From Gigantopelta aegis (lineage: Eukaryota > Mollusca > Gastropoda > Neomphalida > Peltospiridae): DNA of 64,000 bases. Where the stretch lies: NCBI RefSeq assembly GCF_016097555.1, contig NC_054702.1, positions 64,153,682 through 64,217,681 of the forward strand, given 5' to 3'. Shown piece by piece: positions 18,680-49,445 of the stretch. The position numbers and the translations under genes were made by a program. The stretch's first letter is position 1. The number at the start of each line of letters is the position of its first letter. Below the pieces are notes generated by a model that was not told where the DNA came from, made no database searches, and saw only the letters and a list, made by a program, of their open reading frames with translations.

Positions 18680-18834
18680 CTACCTAGGCCTATACACAAA
18701 AACAAGCATTTGGTCCAGAATATGATCTACATCTGGCTGATTGTTCTTCCGCAGTCGACAAATCTCCCAACTCCTATTGGCCAGCACCATATTCAGCTGG
18801 AGGGCATCTTTTATGTCATCTATAGATGCCGCAC
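18680..18834 (-). CDS. ARF-like gene 1, exon 3 (C-terminus)
   Basis: The acceptor is TTTTGTAG before 18,834. It encodes AASIDDIKDALQL, aligned to the ARF block AAEITDKLGL, then a 50-residue tail ending VFVYRPR and TAG (18,680-18,682). Confidence 0.85.
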
Positions 18835-21800
18835 CTACAAAATGTAGTAGCTGAATTATAATCACATACTTAGTATTTTATTTCTGCAACTGAATGTAAT
18901 ACAATGCTTATACGGATATGTTGAATGTATATATCACCAAATTAAATCCCACAGACGACAATAGTAACATATGTGGCTAAAACTACTACCCTGCACAACG
19001 TATCAATCGACATATATAAACCACGGATATAAATACTACCACTCTTCACCCTTAAAGTGAATCAGAAAAAATTGAGGGTCAAGCTGCTCGTTTCAGAGAT
19101 AACGGGTAGCGTCTATGACTACCCTAGTTTTGCACAAAATTGAGTACTTATTTTTTACAGGTACTCCATACATGTTTCAAGCACAAGGCTACTTGTCACA
19201 GTGGTACTAGATGAAACAAAATTGGTCTAGATAAAAAAAGTTTTTGTTTTTGTTTTTTTACAACACACTCACATTTATCACCAATGATAGAGTGCTGTTA
19301 AAGCAATACATGTCCCCTACCGCGCCCAACACATTTTCATATCTCCTAAATTCATGGGCCATATCTGTGTCAAAAATAGGTCAAGTGCCTTGAACGTTAA
19401 ACTATATCTGTAACAGTACATAATAAAGCTATATACCAAATTATATCTCAATATCTGAAGACACTGTGAAAAAAACCCCATCCTGAAAACTATATGTAGG
19501 ACAGACGGACGAACGGACGGACAGACAGACAAACAGAAGGACGGAGATGAAACATATAGTCCTCTCCGGTTGGTACTAAATGCTAACAGGAGACGTGTGC
19601 TGTAGAATTAGTCTAATTGAAAGTAATGTCTGTTTTGTTTAACGACGCCATTAGAGTTCACTGATTTATTAATAATCGGCTATTGGATGTCAAACATTTG
19701 GTAATTTTGACAGTCTAAGTGAGGAAACCCGCCACAGTTATCCATTAGTTGGAAGGAATGTTTTATGTGCACCATCCCACAGACATGATAGCACACACCA
19801 CGGTCTTTGATATACCAGTCGTGGAGCACTGGGCTACGCCCCGTCCTAGTCTAATTGACGTCAGCAGAGTATGTTTTAGTTCCATTATCGACCATGTACA
19901 GAATAAAATAAAGAACAAATTGATAAAACAATCATTCTTAGAGTAATTCTAAACAGTACATGTCCCCTACCAAACCGAACACATTTTCGTATCTTCTAAG
20001 TTCAAGAGCCATAACTCTGTGAAAAATTGGTAAATCACTATAAGAGTTAAAAGTGTTCTGTAACAGTACATGATAAAGCCATACAAAAGTTCATCTGAAT
20101 ATCTTCAGATATTACAAAAAGAAACAAAAAGAGAAAAAGTCTGAAAAACGTTTTTTTTATATATATATATATATATCTTAAGTTCAAGGGCCATGAAAGT
20201 AAAACTGTATCTATAAATGAACACGATAAAGCTATACACAAAATCTCAGCTCAGTATCTCGAGGAATTAAAAAAAAAAGTGGAAATTTATTTTTCGTATC
20301 TCTTAAGTTCAAAGGCCATATCTCTGTGGCTAGGCCCAATGGGCTATTTCTCGTTCCAGCCAGTGCATCACGACTGGTGTATCAAAGGCTGCGGTATGTG
20401 CTATCCTGTCGATAGGATGATGTATATAAAAGATCCTTTGCTACTAATGGAAAAATGTGGCGAGTTTCCTCTCTAAGACTATATGTCAAAATTACCAAAT
20501 GTTTGACATCCAACAGCCGATGATTAATAAATTAATGTGCCCTAGTGGTCAAACAAAACACACTTTTGTCAGCACGTGTTACAGTTTATTGTACTAATTA
20601 CCTGGAGTATTCACCATGTTTGCTACTACTAAGATTGGAACTGTGCGCAAGTCAACAGCTTCCACCAATTGCTCCAGGTCCTTCTTGGCCTCTTCTATGT
20701 TAGCCATGTCAGCACAGTTTACCATCAGGATAACCCCTTGAGTTGCATCATAGAACTGTCTTCGTCGCAAACGCATGCCCGGTTTGCCACAAAGGTCATA
20801 GACCATGAACTTTTCACCAAACCTAGGACAACTGATGATCTCGACATTGTATGTGTCCGTTGGATTTGGAGCAACGACTTTGCCAACTCCCTTATGCATT
20901 GCACGCAGCAAATAAGTTTTTCCTGAAAGAATAAATAGCAGAATTTACATTGACATTTACATTGAATTAAAACAATATGTATGTTTAATGGTAAGCCTTC
21001 TGACTGTATTTTGCCCATGCTGTTTTGTAATGGTGTGCACCGACTTTTTGGGACATGGGTATATAGCGCAAGAGACAGCCGGAGTGAATAGGTTAATGAA
21101 CCCCTGTTCGGACCGGTACTACAACCAGATGCGGTCATATAGCAAAACACTGAGACGGAAATGTTCTCAATTTTGGAGTGAAAATAAATGCTTATATAAT
21201 GTATGTTCGCAATGGTGTATGTTGTTAGTGTCAACGAGAACCCGTTATATTGGCAATCTTCATTTGAAGTTGGGCAATTTAACATGGAATCCAATGGCAG
21301 ATGACATCTGTGTAGTGAGACCATAGACAAACAAACAAATTATTTATACGAGGAAGTTGAAAACGGGAATGCATGCTTGTTTACTCGGCGACATCTATAT
21401 TAGCCGTATAACATATACAGATTGAGACACATGATACAAAGGTTGAAAATTGGTTGAATTATTATATAGTATCCTGCATGGCATCGTTTAAGTATATGTT
21501 AAGCTTATTATTATCGATAAACATTAGTGCACATGGTATTTGTTTATGGGTCTGACCGGCCTCGGCGGCATCGTGGTTAGGCCATCGGTCTACAGGCTAG
21601 TAGGTACTGGGTTCGGATCCCAGTCGAGGCATGGGATTTTTAATCCAAATACGGACTCCAAACCCTGAGTGAGTGCTCCGCAAGGCTCAATGGGTAGGTG
21701 TAAACCACTTGCACCGACCAGTGATCCATAACTGGTTCAAGAAAGGCCATGGTTTGTGCTATCCTGCCTATGGGAAGCGCAAATAAAAGATCCCTTGCTG

Positions 21801-23765
21801 CTAATCGGAAAGAGTAGCCCATGTAGTGGCGACAGCGGGTTTCCTCTCAAAATCTGTGTGGTCCTTAACCATATGTCTGACGCCATATAACCGTAAATAA
21901 AATGTGTTGAGTGCGTCGTTAAATAAAACATTTCTTTCTTTCTTTCTTGTTTATGGGTCCATTCATTATTGGTGGCATTTATGTTGGGGTTTTTTACTTA
22001 GCCCAGTGGTAAACCGTTCGATTGACGCGCAGTCAGTCTAGGATTGATTCCCGGCGGTGGACCTCAACTGGTGTAAGAAATGCCGTGGTATGTGCTTATA
22101 AAAGATCTTTGCTGCTTCTCGGAAAATGTAGCCTTTTACATTGCGGCAGCGGGTTTCCTCTCTCAATATCAGTGTGGTCCTTAATATCATATAACCGTAA
22201 TCAAAATGTGTTGAGTTCGTCAAATGAAACATTCCTTCCTTCCAAGGGGCGGGACATGGCCCAGTGGTAAAGTGCTCTCGGTCTAGGATCGATCCCCGGC
22301 GGTGGGCCCGTTGGGCTATTTCTCGTTCAGGGCTACGCACCACGACTGGTATACAAAAGGTCATCGTATGTGTTATTCTGTCTGTGGGATGGTGTATAAA
22401 AGATTCCTTACCAGTAATAGAAGCATGTCTCTAAGACTAAATGAATACCTGACTATGACAATGTCACAACTCCACCAACAAAATAACAGCACAATTCTAG
22501 GAGATGTGCCACTGTTTTACTCAGCAGAACTATCTAAGCCAATCTAATTAAAATTAGCTCCACTATTACATGTGGATCTAACACCAGCCAGTTGGAGCTC
22601 ATGTTCACCAATCAAAACCTTACTTGCAGAATCCTGCCAGTGATTTAAAACTAACAACACTGCTTAGTCCCCAATGTCCAGGTAACATTTCGTCTGTAAA
22701 TAATAATTTAAATATTGACCAATCACACTTCTCCTTTTATAACGTTATTTGGGAGCATACAAATTCTAAAAATATCGGGCGAGTCTATTTTAGTGGCCGC
22801 AGTACAGCGAACCATACCAATACATACGGGGTGGGTTATCAGTCTTCAATTTTACATTAAAAATTATTTATTTATTTATATAAAAAAACCTAACTAAATC
22901 AGTCTTCAATTTTACATTACAAATTATTTATTTTATAAAATAAAACATGTTTTAAAGCATTCGTATTTCACACGAAACATGTCGTATACCCTCAGGATAA
23001 TTCGGAATGTTTTCAAATTATTTTTAAATCACTGGCAGGATTCTGCAAGTAAGGTTTTGATTGGTGGACATGAGCTTCAACTGGCTGGTGTTAGATCCAC
23101 ATGTAATAGTGGAGCTAATTTTAATTAGATTGTATCTAAGCATGCTTTATTAAATTCTATTGACTTGGAGTCTTGAGTTGTGTTATTATTTTACTCAGAC
23201 AGTTAGATTGACACCACGTGTTATTCTAGTGCTAAATCAGTTTTTGACGAATGTGGATTTGGCATGTTGTTATAGTCAGATATTCAAATGTCAGAATTAT
23301 CAAATGATTGACATCCAATAGCCGATGATCAATAAAGCAGTGTGCTCTAGTGGTGTCGTTATTAAATAAAACAAACTTTCCCTATATTCCTTTATTGGTA
23401 CCATAGTTTTATGGCGTTATTATTTGTGTCACACTTCGTGGTTTTCCCTCTAAAAAGCCCTCGTAGAAACAAAGAAACAAAGGTTTGATAGACTTAAAAT
23501 TTCCGTAAGACATTTGCGTGTTAAAGTTCGAGGCGCACCGTTAAATATTTACAGAGTAAAAACAGTAGTAATATGTGACATGGGTTATTTGTGAAATTAC
23601 TATCATCCGTTGCCAATAACTTCAGCGAAAATGAGGATTGCTAATAAAAACGTTCATGAAATCGCTTAAATGGTATGTGCATTTTGTTCCAAACAAATAG
23701 GGCCTACCTGCATTAACTGGTCCAATAATGAGTATTTTTATCGGCACTGAAGAACTGCCCCCCAT
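18680..23765 (-). CDS. ARF-like small GTPase, divergent, gene 1 (3 exons, 177 aa)
   Basis: Exons 23,765-23,708, 20,922-20,602 and 18,834-18,680 join through GT/AG phase-1 introns into one open frame. The start MGGSSS has Gly2 for N-myristoylation and a good Kozak context, but the usual ARF amphipathic helix is nearly absent (14 residues before G1). G1 is GPVNAGKT (15-22), the switch-I Thr is PT41, followed by YNVEI as in ARF. G3 is Y-D62-L-C-G65-K66, so DxxG is kept but the catalytic Gln is Lys. IEEAKKDLEQL and VPILVVAN match the ARF fold. G4 is N121-M-V-N instead of NKxD, and no SA/CAT G5 is visible near ICRLRKNNQ. A paralog lies at 34,655-49,445. I infer a membrane-attached protein with weakened or altered nucleotide binding; its cellular role is unknown. 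Intact frames across three exons argue against a pseudogene. Confidence 0.88.
18850..19260 (-). other. Intron 2 segment conserved between the two ARF-like genes
   Basis: Blocks such as cggatatgttgaatgtat, gacgacaatagtaaca and ttcagagataacgggtagcg recur in order at 34,870-35,165. This shows the intron was copied with the gene. No gene of its own. Confidence 0.85.
19261..19560. repeat. About 130-bp-unit dispersed repeat with CAGA-rich end
   Basis: The unit includes cccaacacattttcatatct, gggccatatctgtgtc and acagtacataataaagctat. It ends in a (GGACA/GACA)n run. Related blocks lie at 19,940-20,332, 37,240-37,540, 44,150-44,284 plus 45,603-45,710, and 46,010-46,340. The open frames in it are repeat products. 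Confidence 0.7.
19627..19846 (-). repeat. SINE A with internal head deletion
   Basis: The A tail (reverse of tttgtttaacgacgccatta) and central domain are present; the head is shortened. The target duplication tagtctaattga flanks it. Confidence 0.85.
19940..20332. repeat. 130-bp-unit dispersed repeat
   Basis: It carries tacatgtcccctaccaaac, cgtatcttctaagttcaaga and further partial units. A (TA)n lies at 20,158-20,176. The same block begins at 44,150 in the second ARF-like gene. Confidence 0.7.
20333..20566 (+). repeat. SINE A, 5'-truncated
   Basis: It starts at aggcccaatgggctatttct and runs through the central domain to aacaaaacacacttt. It ends 36 bp before exon 2 of ARF-like gene 1. Confidence 0.85.
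20602..20922 (-). CDS. ARF-like gene 1, exon 2 (G-domain core)
   Basis: A 321-bp exon, acceptor CTTTCAG before 20,922 and donor GTAATT after 20,602. It carries the Lys-Thr of G1, switch I, DLCGK (G3) and NMVN (G4). It has the same length as its paralog exon at 47,157-47,477, with no indels. Confidence 0.9.
20923..21552 (-). other. Intron 1 of ARF-like gene 1, proximal part
   Basis: Unique-looking sequence without a gene. The open frames on both strands have no recognisable domain. Confidence 0.4.
21553..21946 (+). repeat. SINE head B / tail B, full length
   Basis: Very well preserved, with box-B-like gggttcggatcccagtcg and a CTTT tail. The perfect 13-bp duplication ttgtttatgggtc (21,540-21,552 and 21,947-21,959) marks a fairly recent insertion. 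Confidence 0.93.
21998..22240 (+). repeat. Chimeric SINE, head A / tail B
   Basis: Head A (agcccagtggtaaaccgttc, cagtctaggattgattccc) is followed by a shortened centre and a B tail (gcggcagcgggtttcctctc, gtgttgagttcgtcaaatg). Confidence 0.8.
22246..23388 (+). repeat. SINE A split by a MULE-like MITE region
   Basis: Head and centre lie at about 22,246-22,443; the tail, with gacatccaatagccgatgat and ctctagtggtgtcgtt, lies at about 23,283-23,388. The same SINE, with the same downstream flank (cctttattggta, then ggcgttatt), is at 48,254-48,882 in ARF-like gene 2. It therefore predates the gene duplication. Confidence 0.8.
22540..23132. mobile_element. 593-bp MULE-like MITE
   Basis: The roughly 120-bp inverted arms start CAATCTAATTAAAATTAGCT and end AGCTAATTTTAATTAGATTG. 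It has the perfect 9-bp target duplication tatctaagc (22,531-22,539 and 23,133-23,141). There is no transposase. A copy of identical length is at 36,275-36,867. Confidence 0.92.
23708..23765 (-). CDS. ARF-like gene 1, exon 1 (N-terminus)
   Basis: 58 bp encode MGGSSSVPIKILIIGPVNA plus the first base of Gly20; the donor is GTAGGC. The next exon supplies GKT, completing the P-loop. Confidence 0.85.
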
Positions 23766-23990
23766 CACAATGGCCCTTTCATTTGACGGCAAGCAAGGTG
23801 TTTCAATTTAATGACCCCCCCCAAAACCCCCAACAAAATGTATTCGCGTTTGTATAATTTAATTTATGTATAAAAATACGTCATAATGTAAACAACAAGC
23901 AACGCAACAGTGGTGTTTTCTAATGACGTCATAAAGACGGGTTCACTCAGTACAGTTAACGTACTTATGTAGACATACTCAGTGGCGGAT
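23766..23990 (-). promoter_or_regulatory. Upstream region of ARF-like gene 1 with CRE-like TGACGTCA
   Basis: A palindromic TGACGTCA lies at 23,924-23,931, about 160 bp 5' of the ATG. The block aatgacgtcataaagacg plus gttcactcagtacagtta is conserved upstream of gene 2 (49,589-49,625). I infer a shared core promoter or enhancer; there is no expression evidence. Confidence 0.5.
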
Positions 23991-24175
23991 CCAGAAAATC
24001 CATTTAGGAGGCCCCCAATGACATGAGGCGGAATGCCAATGAAACTTTGGGGGAGGTTTGGAGGGGATCGTAAAAAAATGAAAATGAATATGCAATAAAG
24101 TTATAACTGTCTAAAAATGTAGGTGGGGGGGGGGAGGGGGCGGGCCCTGGCTCCCACTAGATCCGCCTCCGATAC
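23981..24175. mobile_element. MITE of the GGCGGATC family
   Basis: It starts CAGTGGCGGATCCAG and ends near TAGATCCGCCTCCG. The body shares atgacatgaggcggaatgcc with the 15,016 copy, in reverse orientation. Confidence 0.75.
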
Positions 24176-24569
24176 TACTACTACTACTATTACAAGATGG
24201 GGAGCCCAGAGCCTTGAGCTCAAACGACCGAGGTACTAAAATAACTGGTCTAACCTAATTAAACTTGGAGGTAGGCTACCAGTCAGAACCACTTCCAAAC
24301 TGCACACTACCAACCTTACAATGAGGTCATTTATATAGCGACAGACATGCCAACCGCTGCAAAAGCCCCCCCCCCCCCCCCAACGCTCCCAAAATGTGGG
24401 CTAACCAGATTAAATGAGCAAGTACATCCCACTGAATGTAAAATTACCCAAGCCACACAAATTGTCTGCTGAGTTGACCGTACCAGACACCCCAAATATT
24501 CACTCCCTAGACCCTCTGCAAGAACCGATCTAGCTCAAACATTGGAGATACCAGGTATAAATAAGTCAG

Positions 24570-24645
24570 TATAGGCCTACATGTATGTATGTATGTATGT
24601 ATGTGTATGTATGTATGTATGTATACATGTATATATGTATGTATG
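24570..24645. repeat. (GTAT)n microsatellite
   Basis: A simple repeat of GTAT with minor variants. Confidence 0.9.
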
Positions 24646-24734
24646 AGGAGAACAAAAATAACGTCGATTAGCTTATATTCTGAAACTGCCCCTGACATTT
24701 GTATAAAACATCACTCCTACATGATGTACAATTA

Positions 24735-25260
24735 CCCTACATGATTGCAGTTGTTGGCAAAACGTTCACTGCGGCGTCTGTAACCACGTTGTCGTCCATC
24801 ACGTCGCTGTAGAAGGAAACGTGACTCGTCGCTGAACCATACTCGCCGCCAGTTTCCCAAGTTCCACCCCCTGTACATTCGTGCACCAGCGAACACGTAA
24901 ATGTCGATGTTGACGTCGCAGGACGGGGCCAACATACGGTCTCCTAGCCCGTAAACCAACTTCTCTAAGTCGGTTCCGAATGGTTTGTGCAAACACCCTT
25001 CTCAAACCAGGTATAGACCAGCAGTGTTCGTTGCTGTGGCAGTTCGGTGACGCAAGTGCAGAACCCGGATGTAGCGAAGATGTGCTGTGCATTTCTGGGC
25101 CGGTCCTCAGCTGATTGAAACTGCTGGTACCTGTCCCAGAGACGTGAAATGGTGCTCTGATCGACGTTCATGTGGCGTGCAACTGCTGACTGCGATTCAC
25201 CTAGCTGGAGGCGGCCTATTGCATTGTTTCGATTCGGCAGGTTTAGTCTTGGCATCTTGC
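24735..25260 (-). pseudogene. Tc1/mariner-type transposase, broken
   Basis: It starts MPRLNLPNRNNAIGRLQ with an HTH region (SAVARHMNVDQSTISRLWDRY). In another frame come TIRNRLREVGLRARRPYVG and then, in a third, WFSDESRF (second catalytic Asp) and GYRRRSERFANN. At least two frameshifts separate these, and the last catalytic third is absent. It is a non-functional Tc1-family fragment with no clear TIRs. Confidence 0.9.
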
Positions 25261-25839
25261 AACTCCTCTACGTCGAAAAGGAAATGAGGCATCATTGCGA
25301 GCATCGCAGCTTTAAATACCCATCACTACGCCAATCTTTTCCCCGAGTTCCACGTGCATTCGCCAAAATCTGACCATTCCACGCCGATTTCCTGCAATTG
25401 TTGCACAGCGTGTCACAACGTGCCACAATGTGCGTTAAATTTGTTTTAGGGTGCATTTGGGCATGCTGTCCTATTCCAGGAACATTAACAAACATAGTCA
25501 TTCAGCAACATTGTACAAAAAGCCCCGATATTTTGTAAAATCAAACACTTTTCTTCTTTCCCTATCACCTATGCGTGTCTTTTTTGACAGAGTATATATA
25601 TATTAATTTTCATCCCCCGTTCCCTAAGCATTCCGCCCATGTCATTGGGGCCCCCTAAAGAAAGAAAAAAGAAAAAGAAATGAAAGAGGACTTGTTGCAT
25701 TCTTAAGGGACCACAAGTATCAGAATGAGGTGCCATAACACTTGGTCCCAAGTTCTTGGCACAAAGAATTTGTTGTAGTTTTTTCACTTTCTGTTTTAAT
25801 TTAATGAACATTTTAGAAATGATTCTTTAATGTGTACAT

Positions 25840-26889: not shown

Positions 26890-26932
<43 letters not shown>

Positions 26933-27159: not shown

Positions 27160-28510
27160 TGAATGAATGTTTGTTTAACGACACCCCAGCACAAAAATAT
27201 ATATCGGCTATTGGGTGTCACAAATGGTAAGTATATGGAAATATTATATATATATATATTCATGTAAAACCACAGTGTAAGGAGCTGTGGGGAAAAGTAT
27301 AATATAATACATAAAATGAAGGTAAGTATATTTTAAAAATTTAAGTCAAAGTGTTTTAAAAACTTTACAATTAATTCTGGATGTAATTTAAACGATTCCA
27401 AAACATTTATGTTGCCAAATATATCATTTCTCGTCGGCTTGAGATGATCACACTCTACCAAAATGTGGTGCACAATCAGTGTACACTGACAATGTTCACT
27501 GAGGAGGAGGGTCCTTCTTTAAAATAAATGAATGCGTCAAATATGTATGGCCGATGCGGGCACGGCACAAGACTACTTCATCCTTCCTGCACCGCCTGTA
27601 GGATGACTGCCACTCTCCTAGAACTGCCTTGACAGAATGAAGCTTATTCGCAACCGCACCATCCCAATCGTCTTGCCAAGTCGAAAATATATATTGGTTA
27701 ATATGAAATTTAAAATCACTGTAGGAGACACTAACATGGACACAGGGCAAGTTCAAAGCAGACTTGGCATCAACATCTGCCTTTTCGTTACTCTTAATGC
27801 CAATATGGCTGGGTGGGTACCCAACAAAATATAACATCTTTATTGGCAATTGATGAAAGGACACACTTTCGTATCACCATCGCAACTAAGGGATGCTCCA
27901 ATTTCATGTACTGTAGAGCTTGGAGACACGAACGTGAGTCTGTAAAAATAATATACTTGGATGCACATGAATCCTTATTCTGTTCCAGGGCTTTAATGAT
28001 TGCCCAAATTTCAGCAGTAAAGACTGATGCTGAATCGGGCAATCTCATGGAAATTATTGCGTCTGATGGAAAACCTGTAGCACAAGCCACATGATTCCCA
28101 TCCTGTGATCCGTCTGTGTAAACAGGAATGTAATCACAGTACCGCTCTTGGATTTCCATGAAATGTTGTTTATAAATAACTGCATCTGAATGAATGAATG
28201 AATGTTTAACGACACCCCAGCACGAAAAATACATCGGCTATTGGCTATGGTAATGCAAACAAATAAGGTGATGATCAACATCAATACAAAAATTCAAGAT
28301 TTAAATAAAAACAGTGTAAAGAACTGTGCAAAAATATAAATATCACAGATAGATGCTGACTTTTACTAAAAATTTCAAAGAGAATGTTACACCCCTGCAC
28401 CACGGTAAGGTTACAGCACGCGCAGGGGTAACTGCATCTGTGCGATCTTTCTTTAGATGCACAAGATCGAATACAATATTTGGTGGTTTGATACACTAAG
28501 GTGGCAAAAT
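27160..28510 (-). mobile_element. LINE 3' portion (RNase H type), copy 1, split by a small retroposon
   Basis: Read on the - strand: RNase H (IPVYTDGSQDG, FTAEIWAIIKAL, IIFTDSRSCLQAL, then SNEKADVDAKSAL), followed by a WQDDWDGAVANKLH and RIGHTYLTHSFILKK domain. A 3' UTR ends in CGTTAAACAAACATTCATTC. The 5' part of the LINE is missing and the ORF is frameshifted. A 240-bp retroposon sits at 28,189-28,428. RNase H-bearing non-LTR families include the I/Nimb/Jockey groups; I cannot place it further. Confidence 0.85.
28189..28428 (-). repeat. SINE-like retroposon with LINE-derived 3' half
   Basis: Its - strand starts CCCCTGCGCGTGCTGTAACC, has a roughly 80-bp head, then about 170 bp nearly identical to the LINE 3' UTR ending in CATTCATTC. 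It is inserted in the LINE with the perfect 12-bp duplication taactgcatctg (28,177-28,188 and 28,429-28,440). Confidence 0.88.
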
Positions 28511-28544
28511 AAAATATGAAGACGTTTCCAAAATGTATTATTGT

Positions 28545-32223: not shown

Positions 32224-33345
32224 ATGAATGAATGAATGAATGTTTAACGACACCCCAGCACGAAAAATACATCGGCTATTGGGTGTCAAACTATGGTAAT
32301 GGAAAAAACAAAGTGATGATCAACATCAATATAAAAATTCAACAGTTAAATAAAACACAGTGTAAAGGACTGTGTAAAAATACAAATATCACAGATAGAT
32401 ATAATTAAAATTTAGAATAAAATTCAGTATCACGTAAAAATTGTAAAATAATTTCTAGATGGAATCGAAATAATTCCATCACATTTGTTTGACCAAATAA
32501 ATCTTTTCGAATTACTGACAAATGCTTACACTCCACCAAAATGTGGCGCACAGTCAGAGTACACTGAAAGTGCTCACACTGAGGTGGAGGATCTTTCTTT
32601 AAGATAAATGAATGGGTCAAATAAGTATGACCGATGCGGGCACGACACAAGACAATCTCATCCTTCCTGCACTGTCTATAGGAGGACTGCCACTCTCCCA
32701 AGACTGGCTTGATGGTATGAAGCTTGTTCGCAACCGCACCGTCCCAATCATGTTGCCTAGTCGAAAAGATAAATTTGTTAATACTATATTTAAAATCAGT
32801 ATACGGTACACCAACCCTGGCATGAGGCACATTCAAAGCAGACTTGGCAGCTGAATCTGCCTTTTCATTACCCCTAATACCAACATGGCTGGGCACCCAA
32901 CAAAATACAACATCTTTCTTCGCAATAGATAAAAAAAACACTTTCGTATCACCATCCCAATTAAGGGATGGTCCAGCTTCATATTTCGTAAAGCTTGGAG
33001 ACACGAAAGTGGGTCTGTAAAAATAATAAATTTGGATGCACTAGAATCATTTATTTCTTCCAAGGCTTTAATAACTGCCCAAACTTCAGCACTAAAAATC
33101 GATGCTGAGCCAGGCAGTCTTATGGAAAGTATTGTGTCTGATGGAAAAACTGTAGCACAAGCCACAGAATTTCCATCCCATGATCCATCTGTATACACAG
33201 GAATGTAATCACGGTACTTGTCCTGAATTTCCATGAAAAACTGTTTATACACAACAGCATCTGTACGATCTTTCTTCAGGTGCGAAAGATCAAACACAAT
33301 TTTAGGTGGTGTAATACACCAAGGTGGTAAAACAACATTTTAAAA
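32224..33345 (-). mobile_element. LINE 3' portion (RNase H type), copy 3
   Basis: The - strand gives IPVYTDGSWDG, IFSAEVWAVIKAL, IIFTDPLSCLQAL, VPSHVGIRGNEKADSAAKSA, WDGAVANKLHTIKPVLG, RIGHTYLTHSFILKK and a C-terminal CEHFQCTLTVRHILVECKH. A roughly 200-bp 3' UTR follows, with the end GGGGTGTCGTTAAACATTC and CATT repeats. One frame change lies around residue 150. It is 5'-truncated. This is the best-preserved copy and the donor-type 3' end for the nearby retroposons. Confidence 0.9.
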
Positions 33346-34654: not shown

Positions 34655-34803
34655 CTACCTATACACAAAAACAACAAAGTCGTCCAGAATGTGATCTACA
34701 TCTGACTGATTTTCCTTTCCCAATGGACAGATATCCCAAGTCCTATTGGCAAGCATCGTATTCAGGTGAAGAGCATTTTTTATGTCATCTACAGATGCCG
34801 CAC
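34655..34803 (-). CDS. ARF-like gene 2, exon 3 (C-terminus)
   Basis: Same acceptor TTTTGTAG as gene 1. It encodes AASVDDIKNALHL to VFVYR and TAG (34,655-34,657), two residues shorter than gene 1. Confidence 0.85.
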
Positions 34804-37800
34804 CTACAAAATGTAGTAGATGAATTATAATCACATACTTACTAAAAAAAATTAACTAAAATTAATATAATGATTGTACGGATATGTTGAATGTATACCA
34901 CCAAATCAAATCCCATAGACGACAATAGTAACGCATGTGGCTAAAACTCCTACCCGCAGCGTATCAATCGACATAATATACACCACGGATATTATAAATA
35001 CTACCACCCCTCACCCAGTGAATAGGAGTAAAGCTGCTGATTCCAGAGATAACGGGTAACGTCTAGGACTACCCTAGTTCCGCACAAAATATGAGGGTTT
35101 TTTTTAACAAGTACCCCATAAACGTTTCAAGCACAAGGCTACCTGATACAGTGGTATTAGATGAAATATATATATATATTTTTTTACAACACACTCACAA
35201 TTATCACCAATGACAGGGCTTGTGGGATTAACTGCTCTATCAACTTTGACCCAGCCGGATGTTATTTGGTTTAGTATAACCTGTACGCCTACGGAGATAA
35301 ATATCATAATTGTAATTATACAATGTTATGTTTAAGCATCTAATCATTTTATGATTTTAAGCTTAAGTCCAATTATATTCATGTACCCTTAAAATTAAAG
35401 CCACTAAGCCTTGTATTAAAGCCGCACACCCTAGTTCCATCCAGCGAAAATAAATTATAATTTGGTTAATCTACAAACCTGTAACACACTTAGATCACGT
35501 TTTTATCAAATGGAGTGAAAAAGCAGGTTTTATATCGATAAATACCATGGGAATCCCCATGTCCCAATTGCTTAAAATAATTTTGAAAGTTAGTATTCTG
35601 ATGTCACCGGTAGATGTCGCTCGAAGCACAACAATGCCTACGTCACGACAAATTTCACAGACTTGGGGTGCGTTCCTTTCACCTCTCCTGGACATGTTGC
35701 AACTGTTCTGTCCTGGTTGTATCCCCTCTCCAGATATCGTAAGACTAAGCAAAATTATTAGTTTTAAGGATTTGTAACGTTTTGTATTGAGACACTTACG
35801 TGTCTGAACTTTATTGTTACCGAAAATGTTCACGAACTGTGAAGAAAAATCTCACAAATGAACAACAAGCAAACGACAATAAATCGGATGTTGATTGCGC
35901 GAACCGTGCACGAGAAAACAAACCGAACCAAAATGATAACGGTCACGTGGTATACCAACGTCTGTGACGTTTACACAGGAAGATTCCCTCTAAAAAACAG
36001 ATTGGACCTCGCTTGCTTAACGGTTTTTTCTCGAGTGCGCGCGGCTTTTTAAGAAATACAAAAAATGCATTTCGTGGTTTTACAAACAGCAGGATTACCG
36101 GGATTCCCAAAAAGCACTTCAGGTGAATGGACATGTGTATTCTAAATAATAAAATGTAAGTAAAGTGCAATTTTATTTGTGAAAAAATGGGTTTAATAGC
36201 GAAAAACAACGCCGTAATGGTTAACAACTAGCCGTAACTAGGGTGTGTCCCTTTAAACCTGTTTAAAAAGCCAGCAATCTAATTAAAATTAGCTCCACTA
36301 TTACATGTGGATCTAACACCAGCCAGTTGGAGCTCATGTCCACCAATCAAAACCTTACTTGCAGAATCCTGCCAGTGATTTAAAACTAACAACTCTGCGT
36401 AGTCCCCAATGTCCAGGTAACATTTCGTCTGTAAATAATAATTTAAATATTGACCAATCACACTTCGCCTTTTATAACGTTATTTGAGAGCATACAAATT
36501 CTAAAAATATCGGGCGAGTCTATTTTAGTGGCCGCAGTACAGCGAACCATACCAATACGTACGGGGTGGGTTATCAGTCTTCAATTTTACATTAAAAATT
36601 ATTTATTTATTTATATAAAAAAACCTAACTAAATCAGTCTTCAGTTTTACATTACAAATTATTTATTTTATAAAATAAAACATGTTTTAAGGCATTCGTA
36701 ATTCACACGAAACATGTCGTATACCCTTAGGATAATTCGGAATGTTTTCAAATTATTTTTAAATCACTGGCAGGATTCTACAAGTAAGGTTTTGATTGGT
36801 GGACATGAGCTCCAACTGGCTGGTGTTAGATCCACATGTAATAGTGGAGCTAATTTTAATTAGATTGAAAAGCAGCATACGATTTTTCACCTTAAAAAAC
36901 AAACAAATTAAAACAAAATAAAAACATTAAAAACGAAACAAAAATGAAATTGCATTTTAAAAAAATATGATATTGCATTTTAAAAAAAAAATGAAATTGT
37001 ATTTAAAAAACCCAATGATAGTTTCAAAAAATATATTTAATTGAAACCGCCATTAAAAAAACAACTTTCTAGCTTTCATAAGATTATTTCAGATTTAACA
37101 AAGAAGAAAAAAAAAAGATACTATCGCTGATAGCAGCATAAGTATTGTGGAGCTAATAATTAATCTGTTAAGTATTGTGGAACCAATTAAATTAACGTTT
37201 CACCTTTTATTAGATCATTAAACCTTTTACTTTTAAACAAACATTCTGAGAGTACTGCTAAAGCAATACATGTCCTCTATCGCGCCCAACACATTTTTGT
37301 ATGTCCTAAGTTCAAGGGCCATAACTAAAAAAAGTCAAACTTGATCTGTAACAGTACATCATAAAGCTATACACAAAATGTCAGCTCAATATCTTGAGGC
37401 ATTTGTAAAAAAAAAGTCTGGAAAACATATTTTCATATTTCCTAAGTTCAAGGGCCATAATTCTGTCATAAATGGGTAAATCGTCATGAAAGTCAAACTT
37501 GAGCAGTAACAGTACGTGATAAAGCTATACACCTATATATATATTTGCATATATTTAGGATCATAAACCTAGTGGACAACCTTGCCAACAAGCTACTGAA
37601 AATGTGTTATTCGCCGTTACATATAATGCCCCTCTGCGAAATTCACCCAGTGTTTTTCACTTGCCCAGTAGTCAGTCTCTGATTTGGTATCTTTTTGAAA
37701 AAGTGTTTACTTTATGTTTGAAGTTGATTCCAAATGGATTTTTGTACCAAGGAATACAATGGTGCTAACCGATTTTTGATAAAGTGTGTCCGATATGACC

Positions 37801-43600: not shown

Positions 43601-43637
<37 letters not shown>

Positions 43638-43778
43638 GTAGTAACACGTTTATTGTTCCATTATACTGTAGAGGTAAAACAAATATTTTTAAAGAAAGAT
43701 TTTAACTTTAAAATATAACACAAATGCTTAGGTGCGCAGACTTAGGTGACACCAGTGTATAAGTAAGTTTTTATGTTG

Positions 43779-43813
<35 letters not shown>

Positions 43814-46800
43814 AGCAAAAACTTGGGGGTCAGAGGGGTCCTGTTGGACACAATGTATCAAAAATCGGTTTGCACCATCGGATTCCTTGGAAAAAAATCA
43901 ATTTGGAATCAACTTCAAACATAAAGTAAACACTTTCTAAAAAGAGAGGCATCGTATTTAACAGCGAATAAAAAATATTCAGTAGCTTGTTGGCATGGTT
44001 GTCCTCCTAGGTTGTGATCCTAGATATATGTAGATATGATTTTAGGTGGCAAACCTTTTACAGCACGCCCCCTAGGTATATGTTTTATATCCATTATCGA
44101 CCATGTACAGAATAAAATAAAGAAAAAGTTGATAAAACAAGCATTTTGAGAGTTCTTCTAAAGTAATACATGTCCCCTACCAGACCGAACACATTTTCGT
44201 ATCTTCTGAGTTCAAGAGCCATAACTCTATGAAAAATGGGTAAATCACTATAAGAGTTAAATTTGTTTTGTAACTACATGATATGACCGTCAAGTGAGGC
44301 GGTGGGTAATTTTTTTTAGGAAAATAGGAATTTGTGTTGCCTAAAACTAGGGTTAAAATATGAATTTTGCCCACTAAATAGGAAGAAAATAGGAATTTTG
44401 TATAAAAGTAAATGTCCCAAAATAGAGAATATTGCAGATGTCAAGTGAGTGAGCCATCTCAAAACACTAAATATGGAAAAAGAAAACCATTGAAAAGATA
44501 ATAATACAGGAAAATAAGACAATGTGTATATCATAGGAATAAAATAGGCACTTATTTTGTTTTAAGATGGCCTCCCAACACCCCTTATAGCCATCCCGAT
44601 CCACCACTTTTTATTCAGACAATGCAGTGGTTGAATTTGGTTCTTTGGAGTAAGACTTTTAAAAAGCAACACAATGCAGTATTCCTTTTATGCTATTGAA
44701 TAATAATAGTTACAAGGTCAAATTTTAACTCTTAAATGACAGGGGTGTTGACTGAAAAAACCCCACAACAAGACATTGCTTACCCAGTGACACCATCAAA
44801 AACAGCAGCCATGGCAGTGTGTGTGTGTATGTATGTGATTGAATGTGATTGAATGTGGGTATGGACACTATTTTTAAAATTAGTTTTCTCTTGGTAGATC
44901 AACTGGATAATATAGCTGGATTTAGTAGCTGTGTGCTAACTGAATTGGTAGAAATAATGTGTCAAATAATTATGATACTGCAGGTGTGCACATTTAATAG
45001 AATACTTGTTACGGTAAGCAAAGCACAACCTGCAAATGAGCACTGAAGTCCTACTTCCTTAGACACCATGCACCAGTATATCAGAGGTAACCCTAACAAT
45101 TTCAGTCTGACTTTGTACAATTTAGACGTGATGAGAAATGTGGAAAATGTAAGATGTTTGCACAAACACCCACCCACCTAGTAGTTGTTTTGTTTTTGTT
45201 TTGTTTTTCTAGTTTTGAGCATTCAACAAGATCAGATATTATCAAAAAACAGAACCATATTCAGAAATTCAGAAATTATAAATAAGAGGACTTTATATTG
45301 CATTGTGAACATTAATAACTGGAAGCCTGTAACCATGCATCCCATCTGCATATTCAGATTTCAATGACTATGCCACAGATATCACAATATGCCTCATATC
45401 AAGTCATCTGGAGCAAATGGTGTTAAGAGAAAAAATATGGTGTCGCTAAAATAAAAAAATAAAAATATATATATATAAAACTGGTCAAAAGTGCAAAAAA
45501 AAGAGGGAAAAAATAGAAATTTTCATCAAAAAGAGGGCTAAATAGGGACTCATAAAAAAAATAATAGGAATAAACAAGAAAAAGTAGGATACTTGACGGC
45601 CTGATAAAGCTATATACAAAAGTTCATCTGAATATCTTCAGATATTGCAAAGTTTGAAAAGCACATTTTCATATCTCCTAAGTTCAAGAGCCATAACAAG
45701 ACCAAGGCCGTAGCTAACGAGGGGGGGGGGGGGGGGGGGGGGGGGGTTGATCCGGAAAACATTATAGAAACTTAAATAACAGTATCTTCTTAACCGTTTA
45801 AGGAGTTTTAGACTATTAACTACTCAGTTGCCACCCCCCCACCACGGGTATTTGTGAATATTCAGTTGAGATTTATGCTTGCATTTATGTTTGCACTGCT
45901 GGTGAAAAACCAATTGTCATTTTTAAAAATAACATCATGACTATCACTAAGCTTAAGAATTTACTTCCTATTCCAAATAATTAGCCTTTAGACAGTGGAT
46001 CTGTGCAAAACGAACAAATTTCCATAAAGTAAATCTTTATCTATAACTGAACATGATATAGCTATAGACACAAAATTTCGGCTCAGTATCTTGAGACATT
46101 GCATAAACAAAATCCGGAAAACTAATTTTCGTATCTCTTAAGTTCAAGGACCATAACTCTGTCAAAAATAGGTAAATCACCATGAAAGTCAAACTTGATC
46201 TGTAACATAACATGATAAAGCTATACACACAATTTCAGCTCAGTATCTCAAGACATTTGGAAAACTATATGTGGGACAGACGCACAGACAGACAGGCAGA
46301 CAGAAGGATGAAGATACAACCTATAGTCCCCTCCAGTTGACAGGGTTGGACAGGTAAGTACACTGAATCCATCACGAACAACAGAATACTTTCAAGACTA
46401 TCCCTTCTCACTGAGAGGAGAATCTAAGGGTGGGGTGGGGGTGGGGCAGGGAACCCCCCCCTAAATTTTGCGATAGTTATAATTTTATTATATATTAATT
46501 TTCATTTTTTTTACGATCCCCCTCCAAACCTCACCCAAAGTTCCCATGGCATTCCACCTCATGTCATGGGGGCCCCTAAATGGATTTTGTGGATCCGCCA
46601 CTGTCACTGATGCCATTCCTGAAACAACGACGGGTGGGACGCAGCCCAGTGTTAAAGTGCTCGCCTGATGCGCCATTGGTCTATTTCTCGTTCCAGCCAG
46701 TGCACCACGACTGGTATATCAAATGTCGTGGCATGTGCTATCCTGTCTAGGATAATGCATATAAAATATCCCTTGTTACTAATGGAAAAAAAATGTGGCG

Positions 46801-48023
46801 GGTTTCCTCTCTAAGACTACGTGTCAAAATGACCAAATGTTTGACATCCAATAGCCGATTATTAATAAATCAATGTGCTCTAGTGGTATTGTCAAACAAA
46901 ACAAACTTTAACTTGTCCTGGAACAATCCTTATTGAATTGAAAAACACGAAAAAAATCCCCAACCCAACAACCACCTCTCCCCAAAAAGAGGACCCCCTC
47001 CAAAAAAAAGAAGAAGAAAGAAAAGAAAAAAAGAAAAGAAAAAAAAAAAGAAAAAGAAACAAAGAAAGAAAAGAAAGAAACCCCAACCCAAACAATACCC
47101 AACCTGAAGTGTATTATTCTTTGTCAGCACGTGCTACAGTTTATTGTACTAATTACCTGGAGTATTCACCATGTTTGCTACTACTAAGATTGGAACTGTG
47201 CGCAATTCAACAGCTCCCACCAATTGTTCGAGGTCCTTCTTGGCCTCTTCTATGTTAGCGCTGTCAGAACAGTTCACCACGAGGATGACCCCATGAGTTC
47301 CCCTATAGAAGTTTTTCTGATGTGGACGCTTGTCCGCTTTTCCACAAATGTCATAGACCACGAACCTTATATGAGACTTAGGGGAAATGATGATCTCGAC
47401 ATTGTACTTTTGCGTTGGTCTTGGAGCAATGATTTTGTCAACTCCCATTTTCATTGCATAGAGCAAGTAAGTTTTTCCTGAAAGAATAAATTGCAGAATT
47501 TACATTGGCGGATCTAGAGAAGGGTCGCCTGTAGCGGTCCCACGACCCCGACCCGTCCAAGGTGCTCGTTTTAAGAGCCCTTTGGGAGCAAACTCAAATT
47601 CGCCCTTTTAGAATTCTGTGAACCCGTCACCCCCCTTAACAAAATCCTGGATCCACCAGCCCATTACCATAGATCTAGACCATAGTACCTATACCATAAA
47701 TGTTTGTCCCTGTAAAGCTTTACGGACGGGACGTAACCCATTGTAAAGCACTCGCTTGATGCGCGGTCGTTTTGGGATCGATCCCTGTCGGTGGGCCCAT
47801 TGGGTTATTTCTTGTTCCGGCCAGTGCAACACAACTGGTATATTAAAAGCCGTGGTATGTGGGGTGGTGCATATAAAAGATCCCCTGTTGCATTAGGAAA
47901 AATGTAGCGGGTTTCCTCTCATGACTACGTGTCAGAATTACCAAATGTTTGACATGCAATAGCCGATGATTAATGAATCAATGTGGTCGTTAACCAAAAC
48001 TAATTTTATAGCTTTATTTCATG

Positions 48024-48091
<68 letters not shown>

Positions 48092-49445
48092 CACTCAAAA
48101 AGAACCCTGTACTAACCCATTCGGTAATCATTTTCGCTGTCACTGAATCAATGAAAATCACCACACGTCCCATGTAGGAATGTCAACAACACATTTTAGT
48201 TTTCAGTCAAGACTTCCTTTTCAAAGTAAAAAACTCACGTCAAGCTCCACAAATTATGGGCCTACTGGGTTATTTCTCATTCTAGCCAGTGTACCACGAC
48301 TGGTGTATAAAAGGCCGTGGTATGTGTTATTCTGTCAACGAGCTACTCTCGATTCACTAATATCAAAACCTATATTAGCTCGGCCATTTACCTTTCGACC
48401 GACCGTTCAAAATTGCGCCAAATTCCCTCAATCAAAATTGCGCACCCTTTTCTCTTTGGCATTTAACTGCTCCATTCAAATTCCATAGCACCACCACCAC
48501 CCCCACCCGCCTGCTACCGATTTGATCGGGCTGCTGGTGCTCCCTTGCACCTCCTCTCCCCTCCCTCCACCTTTCCTGTCATGGACGGAGGAGCCGGTCA
48601 TGGACGGAGGAGCCGGCCAAGGCCGGCTCTTGTGCCCACGACAGGCGTGCGCTACAACAGCTTGTTCTGAATGTGCACGTAAAACCCTATGACATGACAT
48701 GACATGTTATTCTGTCTGTGGACTGGTGCATATAAAGGATCCCTTGCTACTAATAGAAGAATGTAGCGGGTTTCCTCTCTAAGACTAAATGTCAGAATTA
48801 CCAAATGACTGACATCCAATAGCCGATGATCAGCAAAGCAATGTGCTCTAGTGGTGTCGTTAAACAAAACAAACTTTTCCTTTCTTCCTTTATTGGTAGC
48901 ATAGTTTGATGGCGTTATTGTTTGTGTCACACTGCGTGGGTTTCCCAAAGCCGATCTCGTAGAAATAAAGTTTTGATAGACTTACAATTTCCGTAAGAAA
49001 GTTACGTTTTAAAGTTCGAGAGCCGTGAACTAGTTAAAAAGTAAAAGCAGCAGTAATATGTAACATTAGTTATTTGTGAACATACTATCACCCATTGCCA
49101 ATAACTAAACACACTTTTGTTTGTTATAGAACATGGACGTAGGCAGGTGCCAAAAGGGTGTGTGTGTGTGGGGGGGGGGGGGGCAGACACACCCATATAT
49201 ATTTAAATACATATATAAATATATGAAAACAATCGCTGCTGCTACAAAGTAGAGGTTGCAATCAGTGCAGAGTACCCCCCCCCAAAACACAGGATACCCC
49301 CCCCCCCCCATTTATGGAACTGCGATTTTTTTAGCAAAAATGAGGTTTGCTAATAAAAACATTAGGCCTACTCAAATCAACAAATACCTGCATTAACTGG
49401 TCCAACTATGAGTACCTTTATCGGCACTGAAGAACAATTTCCCAT
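34655..49445 (-). CDS. ARF-like small GTPase, divergent, gene 2 (3 exons, 175 aa)
   Basis: Exons 49,445-49,388, 47,477-47,157 and 34,803-34,655 join through GT/AG phase-1 introns in one frame. The start MGNCSS has Gly2 for myristoylation and Cys4, a possible palmitoylation site that gene 1 lacks. G1 is GPVNAGKT, PT41 and YNVEI are kept. G3 is Y-D-I-C-G-K (Lys for Gln), G4 is NMVN, and no G5 is visible. Residues IEEAKKDLEQLV and LRTVPILVVANMVNTPG are identical or nearly so to gene 1, while the loop after G3 (ADKRPHQKNFYRG) and switch-I flank differ. Intron 2 is about 12.4 kb through insertions, against 1.8 kb in gene 1. Same strand as gene 1, so a tandem segmental duplicate. Substrate and role unknown; nucleotide binding may be impaired or altered. 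Confidence 0.88.
34860..35300 (-). other. Intron 2 segment duplicated from/with gene 1
   Basis: It aligns by eye with 18,850-19,260 along its length, with scattered substitutions and short indels. Confidence 0.85.
35420..36252. mobile_element. Non-autonomous TTAA-site DNA element, 833 bp
   Basis: The ends AGCCGCACACCCTAGTT and AACTAGGGTGTGTCCCT are imperfect inverted repeats (14/17). It is flanked by TTAA on both sides (35,416-35,419 and 36,253-36,256). TTAA targeting fits piggyBac or Kolobok. No transposase recognised inside. Confidence 0.75.
36275..36867. mobile_element. 593-bp MULE-like MITE, second copy
   Basis: Same length and nearly the same sequence as 22,540-23,132, with different flanks (aaaagccag / aaaagcagc), so an independent insertion. 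It does not code. Confidence 0.9.
37240..37540. repeat. 130-bp-unit dispersed repeat
   Basis: Units with catgtcctctatcgcgccca, cctaagttcaagggccataa and gtacatcataaagctatac. It corresponds to the block at 19,300 in gene 1 and is cut by the long-inverted-repeat element. Confidence 0.7.
39230..40640 (+). pseudogene. Decayed ORF of a TE-associated protein family
   Basis: Pieces resemble a family common in invertebrate repeats as I remember it. They include an I.DxTDVYIL strand and a CECLPAFHVDTGSVYTHAL motif, where family members have LPAFHA-TG-D. The copy is broken, with several breaks. It lies in the interior of the long-inverted-repeat element, which suggests, but does not prove, that the element encoded it. 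Confidence 0.5.
41483..42432. mobile_element. 950-bp MULE-like element carrying a helicase fragment
   Basis: Inverted arms of about 380-395 bp start TAGCCCGAGTACTCTGACTG and end inversely. The perfect 9-bp duplication catttacat flanks it (41,474-41,482 and 42,433-42,441). Each arm has a further internal palindrome at its outer end (tctgactgtaa and ttacagtcaga). The unique centre (41,879-42,056) is coding-like. An arm-end fragment lies at 54,042-54,121. Confidence 0.9.
41879..42058 (+). pseudogene. Captured RecQ-type helicase exon fragment
   Basis: About 59 residues, open throughout: WKSLANAVLDEFGF, then IKPKQLHIIDSILN, KDTFGVLSTGYGKSMCYVLP. This fits the N-terminal helicase region, with a Q-type motif followed by Walker A (TGYGKS). 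No later helicase motifs are present. It is truncated at both ends by the element arms and so presumably non-functional. Confidence 0.8.
42466..43790. other. Insert within right arm of the long-IR element
   Basis: AT-rich. An ATG at 42,775 opens a short signal-peptide-like frame (WYVVVGIFILLIMMQ) that ends at a GTAGGT donor-like site near 42,854. A polyA run lies at 43,604-43,631. No gene established. Confidence 0.3.
43779..43814. repeat. Poly-C run
   Basis: About 34 C in a row; length is likely unreliable in the assembly. Confidence 0.9.
44285..45602. mobile_element. 1.3-kb TIR element in a dispersed repeat
   Basis: The ends GACCGTCAAGTG and ACTTGACGGCC are inverted. It splits a 130-bp-unit repeat: catgata before it and tgataaagctata after it. 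Inside are repeated aaaataggaatttt motifs near both ends. No transposase recognised. Confidence 0.65.
46010..46345. repeat. 130-bp-unit dispersed repeat with CAGA end
   Basis: Units with cgtatctcttaagttcaagg and aacatgataaagctatacac. It ends in gacgcacagacagacagg like the copy at 19,500. Confidence 0.7.
46440..46605. mobile_element. MITE of the GGCGGATC family
   Basis: ctaaattttgcgatagttat, tttattatatattaatt, ending ggatccgccactg. Same orientation as 15,016-15,201. Confidence 0.7.
46630..46913 (+). repeat. SINE head A / tail A, head shortened
   Basis: gggacgcagcccagtgttaa, the centre tgtgctatcctgtctaggat, the tail ccaatagccgattattaata, and the end aacaaaacaaacttt. It lies upstream of exon 2, as the SINE at 20,333 does in gene 1. 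Confidence 0.85.
47157..47477 (-). CDS. ARF-like gene 2, exon 2 (G-domain core)
   Basis: A 321-bp exon with the same splice sites as gene 1 (CTTTCAG acceptor, GTAATT donor). It carries AGKT, PT, DICGK and NMVN. Changes relative to gene 1 cluster after G3 and around switch I. Confidence 0.9.
47723..48006 (+). repeat. SINE head A / tail A
   Basis: gggacgtaacccattgtaaa, ttttgggatcgatccctgtc, then a centre with an internal deletion, and the tail tgcaatagccgatgattaat. Confidence 0.85.
48027..48089. repeat. (TA)n microsatellite
   Basis: Uninterrupted TA repeat. Confidence 0.95.
48254..48882 (+). repeat. SINE A shared with gene 1 intron, split by retroposon
   Basis: The part to about 48,344 ends tatgtgttattctgtc. 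It resumes at about 48,717 through the A tail to aacaaaacaaactttt, followed by cctttattggtagcatagtt as in gene 1. The split differs from that in gene 1. Confidence 0.82.
48345..48704 (+). repeat. Retroposon with ACATG-type tail
   Basis: Inserted with the duplication tgttattctgtc on both sides. The 3' part has cacgacaggcgtgcgctaca, gaatgtgcacgtaaaaccct and a (GACAT)n end. A piece of the same family, split by a MITE, flanks 49,984-50,472. Confidence 0.7.
49388..49445 (-). CDS. ARF-like gene 2, exon 1 (N-terminus)
   Basis: 58 bp encode MGNCSSVPIKVLIVGPVNA plus the first base of Gly20; the donor is GTATTT. The MGNC start fits dual acylation. Confidence 0.85.

What the first reader, a model, noticed from the sequence alone, without database searches (positions are those of the whole stretch)
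18680..49445. Tandem pair of intact ARF-family proteins with disabled G3/G4/G5 motifs
Seen: two three-exon genes on the - strand, frames open across all exons, with identical phase-1 introns and a 321-bp middle exon each. P-loop GPVNAGKT, switch-I Thr and DxxG are kept. The catalytic Gln is Lys in both, NKxD is N-M-V-N in both, and no G5 motif is visible. Known: Asp-to-Asn in NKxD shifts other GTPases away from guanine, and loss of the Gln blocks hydrolysis. Inference: a lineage-specific pseudo-GTPase or altered-specificity ARF subfamily, held by selection.
Basis: partly seen in the sequence, partly recalled or inferred. Interest (0 to 1): 0.8.

Follow-up and report, generated by a model that had tools for sequence, protein, structure and literature searches.

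The report
Fast-evolving array of disabled ARF genes
An animal chromosome carries a cluster of eight genes derived from the normally very conserved ARF membrane-traffic switches; all eight read as intact, none keeps the full switch machinery, and their likely contact surface changes faster than neutral drift predicts, as in proteins caught in an evolutionary arms race.

Summary
The two spliced genes are real: three exons each, intact frames, GT-AG junctions where stated, Pfam Arf E=6.4e-27 and 1.3e-29. They are not a pair: they are two of eight intact copies in a 288 kb array; searches found no further copy elsewhere in this genome. All eight lack the catalytic Gln and G5; NKxD varies (canonical in two of eight); three of eight lack the P-loop Ser/Thr. 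ARF-family genes on contig C14 share both intron sites and phases and are the likely parent type. Codon models on six copies give omega 1.48 (p=0.002) and 31% of codons at omega 3.9 (p=2e-12), richest in switch I, interswitch, switch II and G4, and nearly absent from the P-loop, G3 and core strands. That is diversifying selection, not decay. With all eight copies overall omega is 1.10, not above 1, but the site test holds. Best reading: myristoylated, non-cycling ARF-fold decoys or baits in a molecular conflict. Anatomy and selection are shown; expression, nucleotide binding and the decoy role are inferred. New variant of a known kind (pseudoGTPases).

The parts
23708..23765 (-). Gene A exon 1: MGGSSS start (myristoylation-type), first part of P-loop
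20602..20922 (-). Gene A exon 2 (321 bp): P-loop K-T to NMVN, DLCGK at G3
18680..18834 (-). Gene A exon 3 incl. stop: WEICRLRKNNQPDVD at the place of G5
49388..49445 (-). Gene B exon 1: MGNCSS start (myristoylation-type, Cys4)
47157..47477 (-). Gene B exon 2 (321 bp): DICGK at G3, NMVN at G4
34655..34803 (-). Gene B exon 3 incl. stop: WDICPLGKENQSDVD at the place of G5
20744..20878 (-). Gene A switch I - interswitch - switch II codons (residues 35-79), the part richest in positively selected sites
   Evidence: 15 of 45 codons here vs 16 of 130 elsewhere at posterior >0.8, Fisher p=0.002
47299..47433 (-). Gene B switch I - interswitch - switch II codons (same residues)
20609..20620 (-). Gene A NMVN in place of NKxD
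47164..47175 (-). Gene B NMVN in place of NKxD
23908..23935 (-). Gene A promoter block with TGACGTCA, shared with B and four other copies (not P11, P16)
49575..49602 (-). Gene B promoter block with TGACGTCA

Best explanation
Genes A and B belong to an array of eight intact, ARF-derived genes that encode small ARF-family proteins unlikely to cycle as GTPases. SHOWN by sequence: intact three-exon gene models, a short MG N-terminus (myristoylation-type in seven of eight) without the ARF amphipathic helix, loss of the catalytic Gln and G5 in all eight, variable G4, and diversifying selection richest on the switch I / interswitch / switch II face while the P-loop, G3 and core strands show almost none. 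INFERRED: the proteins sit on membranes through N-myristoylation (helped in some copies by a nearby Cys or a basic tail) and present an ARF-like contact surface fixed in one state. Because that face is the one by which ARF regulators, effectors and ARF-hijacking pathogen proteins dock (established knowledge), its fast change fits a decoy or bait role: the proteins bind a hostile, changing partner in place of the real ARFs, and the array supplies variants. Confidence that the anatomy, lost motifs and diversifying selection are right: about 0.9. The figure below is for the full conflict/decoy mechanism.
For: Eight of eight frames intact with the same two phase-1 introns and MG start. Gln lost in 8 of 8, G5 in 8 of 8, P-loop S/T lost in 3 of 8, canonical NKxD in 2 of 8. 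M0 omega 1.48 vs 1: LRT 9.27, p=0.0023; M1a/M2a LRT 53.7, p=2e-12 (M0 lnL equals IQ-TREE's); M7/M8 54.3, M8a/M8 52.8; all six leave-one-out runs keep M1a/M2a LRT at 37.6-51.9; 16 simulations under M1a gave LRT at most 3.7. Mean dN-dS over 15 pairs +0.097, bootstrap 0.014-0.173, 14 of 15 pairs above 1. Selected sites enriched in residues 35-79; by the alignment, sites 72, 73 and 75 match Leu, Trp and His of ARF6. Zero stops against about 18 expected. Pathogen proteins that bind ARFs are among the solved ARF complexes in the fold search (SopF, an MCF-like effector, cholera toxin), which shows only that such partners exist.
Against: No expression, binding or polymorphism data; no partner known. 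A-B alone is 0.82, not above 1. With all eight genes overall omega is 1.10 and not different from 1 (LRT 0.83), though M2a stays significant (LRT 51.6). Split into blocks, omega above 1 is significant for codons 1-60 and 1-90 but not for 61-120 (LRT 2.72), 91-177 (3.01) or 121-177 (0.03), and M2a is not significant for 121-177 (4.95). Flanking non-coding distances are often larger than dS, so dS may understate the neutral rate; dN exceeds the flank distance in 11 of 15 pairs. Diversifying selection is equally expected from reproductive conflict.
Confidence: 0.45

Rival explanations
1. Reproductive or sexual conflict: the copies are germline (for example sperm or egg) ARF-like proteins, diversifying against mates or against selfish elements, not against pathogens.
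For: The same signature (clustered duplicates, intact frames, omega >1) is typical of reproductive proteins in marine invertebrates (established knowledge). Nothing in the sequence tells the two apart.
Against: The MG starts and hydrophilic N-termini look like cytosolic-face membrane proteins rather than secreted ones, less usual for direct gamete recognition; this is by eye, no signal-peptide predictor was run.
Confidence: 0.2
2. Endogenous regulators: dominant-negative-like ARFs that hold ARF exchange factors or effectors and tune trafficking, with bursts of adaptive neofunctionalisation after duplication and no continuing conflict.
For: P15 has GKN and P14 GKD at the P-loop Ser/Thr, the site of classical dominant-negative ARF mutants (T31N in ARF1, T27N in ARF6; recalled); the P-loop and core strands show almost no positive selection.
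Against: The very face such regulators would need to keep constant is the fastest changing; no single gene carries the signal (leave-one-out).
Confidence: 0.2
3. Altered-specificity nucleotide switches (for example xanthine nucleotides through NxxN).
For: The P-loop Gly, Gly and Lys and the G3 Gly are invariant and P-loop and G3 have a low posterior of positive selection (0.05, 0.06).
Against: NxxN in only 2 of 8; Lys of NKxD also lost there; G5 lost in all 8; P-loop Ser/Thr lost in 3 of 8.
Confidence: 0.07
4. Relaxed constraint or pseudogene decay with chance-open frames.
For: Pairwise A-B omega 0.82 with an interval including 1; eight-gene omega not different from 1; P13's exon 2 end lies in a short tandem repeat that makes its NRGR end uncertain.
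Against: 8 of 8 frames and all modelled splice sites intact; about 18 stops expected, 0 seen, P about 1e-8; six-gene omega significantly above 1 cannot come from relaxation; strongly uneven signal along the protein.
Confidence: 0.04

Closest known systems
Canonical ARF/ARL GTPases of the same genome (C14 genes, ARF6 on C9, ARF1-like L001-L003)
   Same: Pfam Arf domain; N-terminal MG; both intron sites and phases match the C14 gene; last exon scores best against C14 in 8 of 8, among eight relatives compared, by small margins in some
   Different: The C14 relative has the N-terminal helix, NKQD and TCAV; WDVGGQ is read in its second copy. These are absent or altered in the array. The three ARF1-like genes are conserved (pN 0.07-0.09 at saturated pS)
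PseudoGTPases (p190RhoGAP domains, listing; ARL14 discussed as a possible pseudoGTPase, passages of PMC12722892)
   Same: Small-GTPase fold without a working nucleotide switch
   Different: Those described there are individual genes or domains (ARL14 keeps its Gln); here a gene array with diversifying selection on the switch face
Mouse immunity-related GTPases, Irgb2-b1 (PMC3810784, passages)
   Same: Clustered, highly polymorphic GTPase family; Irgb2-b1 blocks a parasite kinase complex and so protects other family members
   Different: IRGs are a different, larger, interferon-induced GTPase family (recalled); function of the present array is untested
Mollusc AIG/GIMAP GTPase family (Biomphalaria, PMC7053062, listing and start of abstract only)
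   Same: A GTPase family prone to expansion in a mollusc
   Different: Different GTPase family

Membership tests
ARF family (fold and descent) | Significant Arf profile match | tested here: met
   8 of 8 above Pfam cut-off, E from 1.1e-29 to 6.3e-11
ARF family (fold and descent) | Shared gene structure with a canonical member | tested here: met
   Intron 1 (AATGCAG|GTAGG donor, phase 1 in the P-loop Gly) and intron 2 (PG|A, phase 1) match the C14:801-804 kb gene; a further C14 intron is absent from the array
ARF family (fold and descent) | Myristoylated amphipathic N-terminal helix | tested here: not met
   MG start in 8 of 8 and Ser6 in 7 of 8 (not P11), but no helix-like stretch as in the C14 gene (by eye)
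ARF family (fold and descent) | ARF fold in a model | tested here: inconclusive
   Middle exon alone: pLDDT 71, pTM 0.64; top PDB matches are ARF1, COPII inner-coat chains and ARL1, but best E 1.8e-3 and TM about 0.5
Working GTPase switch | Catalytic Gln after DxxG | tested here: not met
   K,K,K,K,N,E,A,T in 8 of 8
Working GTPase switch | NKxD (G4) | tested here: not met
   canonical in 2 of 8 (P12 NKLD, P15 NKVD); not in A or B
Working GTPase switch | G5 (S/T)-C-A-x | tested here: not met
   absent in 8 of 8; the site holds W-x-I-C-x-(L/M)-x-x-x-x-Q-x-D-x-D
PseudoGTPase | No nucleotide cycling | not testable with these tools
   needs binding and hydrolysis assays
Host-conflict (arms-race) protein | Diversifying selection on a contact surface | tested here: met
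   six-gene set; eight-gene set: site test only
Host-conflict (arms-race) protein | Binds a pathogen protein; induced on challenge | not testable with these tools
   no expression or interaction data
ARL14/ARL11 type | Orthology by tree | not tested
   no annotated animal proteomes in the tools; resemblance of C14's NKQDMPGA to ARL14 is recalled only

The most novel reading that the evidence does not exclude
A germline-encoded innate defence family built on the ARF fold: membrane-anchored, nucleotide-uncoupled ARF mimics whose switch face diversifies to trap pathogen proteins that hijack the host's real ARFs, with the array acting as a repertoire of baits.
Probability: 0.33. Interest if true: 0.82.

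Novelty: new variant of a known kind. Interest (0 to 1): 0.62.

Why it matters
ARFs are among the slowest-evolving eukaryotic proteins and a common target of bacterial effectors and toxins (established knowledge). An array of ARF copies that lost the switch chemistry but diversify most on the face that ARF-binding proteins use would be a natural experiment in ARF recognition, and possibly a new kind of invertebrate immune decoy. It also shows that a single-pair dN/dS near 1 can hide strong site-specific positive selection. The array's A end lies about 17 kb from a menin-like frame, which gives a marker for looking for it in other species.

Tried and rejected
Pseudogene decay: rejected on intact frames and six-gene omega above 1. 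Simple purifying maintenance: rejected by pairwise and model omega. Altered nucleotide specificity as a family trait: not supported. Recombination as sole cause of the site signal: separate runs on codons 1-90 and 91-177 both favour M2a (LRT 44.9 and 16.8), but codons 121-177 alone do not (4.95), and the tree there groups P13 with P14 at weak support (56); gene conversion between A and B is likely but was not formally tested, nor was GC-biased conversion or multi-nucleotide change. Parent by sequence alone: mixed (first part of exon 2 closest to ARF1-like in 6 of 8; middle part closest to C14 in 3 of 8; last exon closest to C14 in 8 of 8), so parentage rests mainly on intron sites. Structure: only the middle exon was folded, since the tool takes proteins read letter for letter from DNA and a spliced product is not; it adds little. 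Promoter TGACGTCA: in 6 of 8 promoters (not P11, P16), but the 8-mer occurs 10 times in the window, so only the longer shared block is informative. Paper searches: none of the titles listed described an ARF pseudoGTPase array, but listings were partial: 9 of 9, 20 of 260 (33), 15 of 21 (36), 5 of 5 (38), 12 of 504 (57), 8 of 9 (63), 10 of 26 (70), in an open-licence library only.
Full report
Observation. On the minus strand the window holds two three-exon genes at the stated coordinates. Splicing gives open frames of 177 and 175 residues with GT-AG junctions, both introns in phase 1 and a 321-base middle exon in both. Both are ARF-family by Pfam (E=6.4e-27 and 1.3e-29). The P-loop is GPVNAGKT, the switch-I Thr is kept, the Gln position is Lys, NKxD is NMVN and there is no G5.

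It is an array. Searching the animal's own genome (1.15 Gb) with A's middle exon gave 15 matches: 8 on one stretch of contig C4 (A itself, B at 68% and six more at 34-54% identity) and 7 to other ARF-family exons on other contigs. Searches with the exon 3 and the exon 1/promoter regions gave 6 and 7 matches, all in the same stretch. The tool calls such counts lower bounds. With small extra stretches I built gene models for all eight: A, B, P16 (minus), P12, P13 (plus), P15, P14, P11 (minus), spanning C4 64.172-64.460 Mb. All eight have three exons, phase 1/1 introns, GT-AG ends, an MG start and no internal stop. Models are by homology only: exon 1 of P15 and P16 lies 22 and 11 kb upstream of exon 2, and the end of P13's exon 2 lies in a short tandem repeat. 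One further promoter fragment without an exon (L034) looks like a relic of a ninth copy.

Motifs over the eight. G1: GPVNAGKT (A, B), GPVGAGKT (P12, P13), GPTGAGKD, GPAGSGKN, GPSLAGKS, GPNAAGKR (P14, P15, P11, P16). G3: DLCGK, DICGK x3, NLSGN, NLSGE, DLSGA, ALRGT. G4: NMVN x2, NKLD, NRGR, NKVE, NKVD, NRVD, NAVD. G5 is absent in all eight and the site holds a new shared block, W-x-I-C ... Q-x-D-x-D (W149, I151, C152, Q159, D161, D163 invariant). Ser at position 6 after MG, a myristoylation-type feature (motif recalled), is in 7 of 8 (not P11); a Cys within residues 3-6 in 4 of 8 (B, P14, P11, P16); a basic C-terminal tail in 3 of 8 (P12, P13, P14). So loss of Gln and G5 is the family trait; NMVN is particular to A and B.

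Origin. An ARF-family gene on contig C14 (801.3-804.4 kb, minus) has a phase-1 intron in the last Gly of the P-loop, with the same AATGCAG|GTAGG junction letters as gene A, and another phase-1 intron after NKQDMPG: the same two sites and phases as the array. It has one more intron that the array lacks. It has an ARF-type N-terminal helix (MGLVLTRIAELF...), NKQD and TCAV. Its G3 exon carries a long G run that shifts the frame as read; a second C14 copy (L054) shows WDVGGQ and the same first acceptor. The last exon of all eight array genes scores best against C14 among eight relatives compared, sometimes narrowly; other parts are ambiguous. The parent type is therefore probable, not proven. The C9 gene whose last exons match human ARF6 in the alignment has an intron one codon away in the same phase. 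On this reading the array lost the N-terminal helix, the Gln and the G5 motif.

Selection. NG86 for A-B gives dS 0.229, dN 0.188, omega 0.82, bootstrap 0.50-1.44. Among the six closer copies (A, B, P12-P15; P11 and P16 left out because their dS to the rest is 0.68-1.06), 14 of 15 pairs have dN above dS and the mean difference is +0.097 (95% bootstrap 0.014 to 0.173). Pairs with P11 or P16 all have omega below 1 (0.51-0.97), at high dS. My codon-model script reproduces the IQ-TREE M0 likelihood (-2648.539). M0 omega is 1.48 (LRT against 1: 9.27, p=0.0023). M2a adds a class of 31% of codons at omega 3.9 (LRT 53.7, p=2e-12). M7/M8 gives 54.3 and M8a/M8 52.8; leaving out any one of the six genes keeps the M1a/M2a LRT at 37.6-51.9. 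With all eight genes M0 omega is 1.10, not different from 1, but M2a still wins (LRT 51.6). Three intronless ARF1-like genes as a contrast give pN 0.07-0.09 with saturated pS.

Where it acts. Mean posterior of positive selection is 0.52 in switch I, 0.45 in the interswitch, 0.53 in switch II and 0.54 in G4; 0.24-0.37 in the N-terminus, helices and G5 region; and 0.05-0.06 in the P-loop, G3 and strands beta4 and beta5 (segment borders are mine by alignment, names recalled). Of 31 codons with posterior above 0.8, 15 fall among the 45 of residues 35-79 and 16 among the other 130 (Fisher p=0.002). Sites 72, 73 and 75 align with Leu, Trp and His of ARF6 (alignment), in the switch II region that binds ARF regulators and effectors (recalled). 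Posteriors are naive empirical Bayes from one model.

Caveats. Promoter, intron-edge and 3' UTR distances are often above dS (P13 left out of two of six segments), partly because those alignments include unrelated stretches; dN exceeds them in 11 of 15 pairs. If the true neutral rate is nearer the flank values, overall omega would fall towards 1, but the contrast between codon classes would remain. Gene conversion is likely between A and B around codons 91-130. By blocks, omega is significantly above 1 only for codons 1-60 and 1-90; the last 57 codons show neither test significant.

Not decay. The six-gene tree carries about 605 substitutions over 175 codons; about 18 stop mutations would be expected if stops were tolerated, none is present (P about 1e-8).

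How it probably works. The proteins keep the P-loop Gly and Lys and the core pattern, look set up for N-myristoylation, and probably cannot run the ordinary GTP cycle (inference from lost Gln and G5 and, in most copies, G4). A fixed ARF-like surface on a membrane with a fast-changing switch face fits a decoy or bait for proteins that grip ARFs. Bacterial effectors and toxins solved in complex with ARFs are among the matches. Mouse Irgb2-b1, a highly polymorphic GTPase-family protein, blocks a parasite kinase complex and shields its relatives (PMC3810784, passages): a functional analogy, not homology. Reproductive conflict and endogenous dominant-negative regulation remain open.

Comparison with print. 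[quoted passage not shown] A 2025 review reports that ARL14 shows no detectable nucleotide binding and discusses it as a possible pseudoGTPase (PMC12722892, passages). Listings of searches, most of them partial, showed no ARF pseudoGTPase array; the library lacks most subscription papers.

Verdict. A new variant of a known kind: an ARF-derived, probably pseudoGTPase, array under diversifying selection.

Noticed in passing
window 252-1295 (+): Long open frame matching part of Pfam Menin (E=8.6e-46, two stretches): a menin-like gene lies about 17 kb from gene A, a possible synteny marker.
   Followed up: partly
window 63302-63913 (-): 203-residue open frame with no Pfam match; its end DNIMQILVGM recalls SERTA-domain proteins (recalled, untested).
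   Followed up: no
window 27794-28234 and 32405-33297 (-): RNase H fragments of retroelements between A and B (one match above and two just below the Pfam cut-off).
   Followed up: no
window 22540-23132 and 36275-36867: 593-base stretch 98% identical between intron 1 of A and intron 2 of B, far closer than the genes themselves: probably a recent mobile-element copy.
   Followed up: no
L055 (C14:803150-803400): The C14 ARF-family exon carries a long G run at its G3 motif that shifts the frame as read: assembly error or a damaged copy.
   Followed up: no
L034 (C4:64442229-64442294): Orphan piece of the array's promoter without an exon 1, a likely relic of a ninth copy.
   Followed up: partly
L013 (P13), downstream of exon 2: The end of exon 2 is repeated head to tail within the intron, so the donor site and the NRGR end of P13 are uncertain.
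   Followed up: partly
window 48025-48088: Long TA-dinucleotide run inside intron 1 of B, with poly-G and poly-C runs nearby.
   Followed up: no
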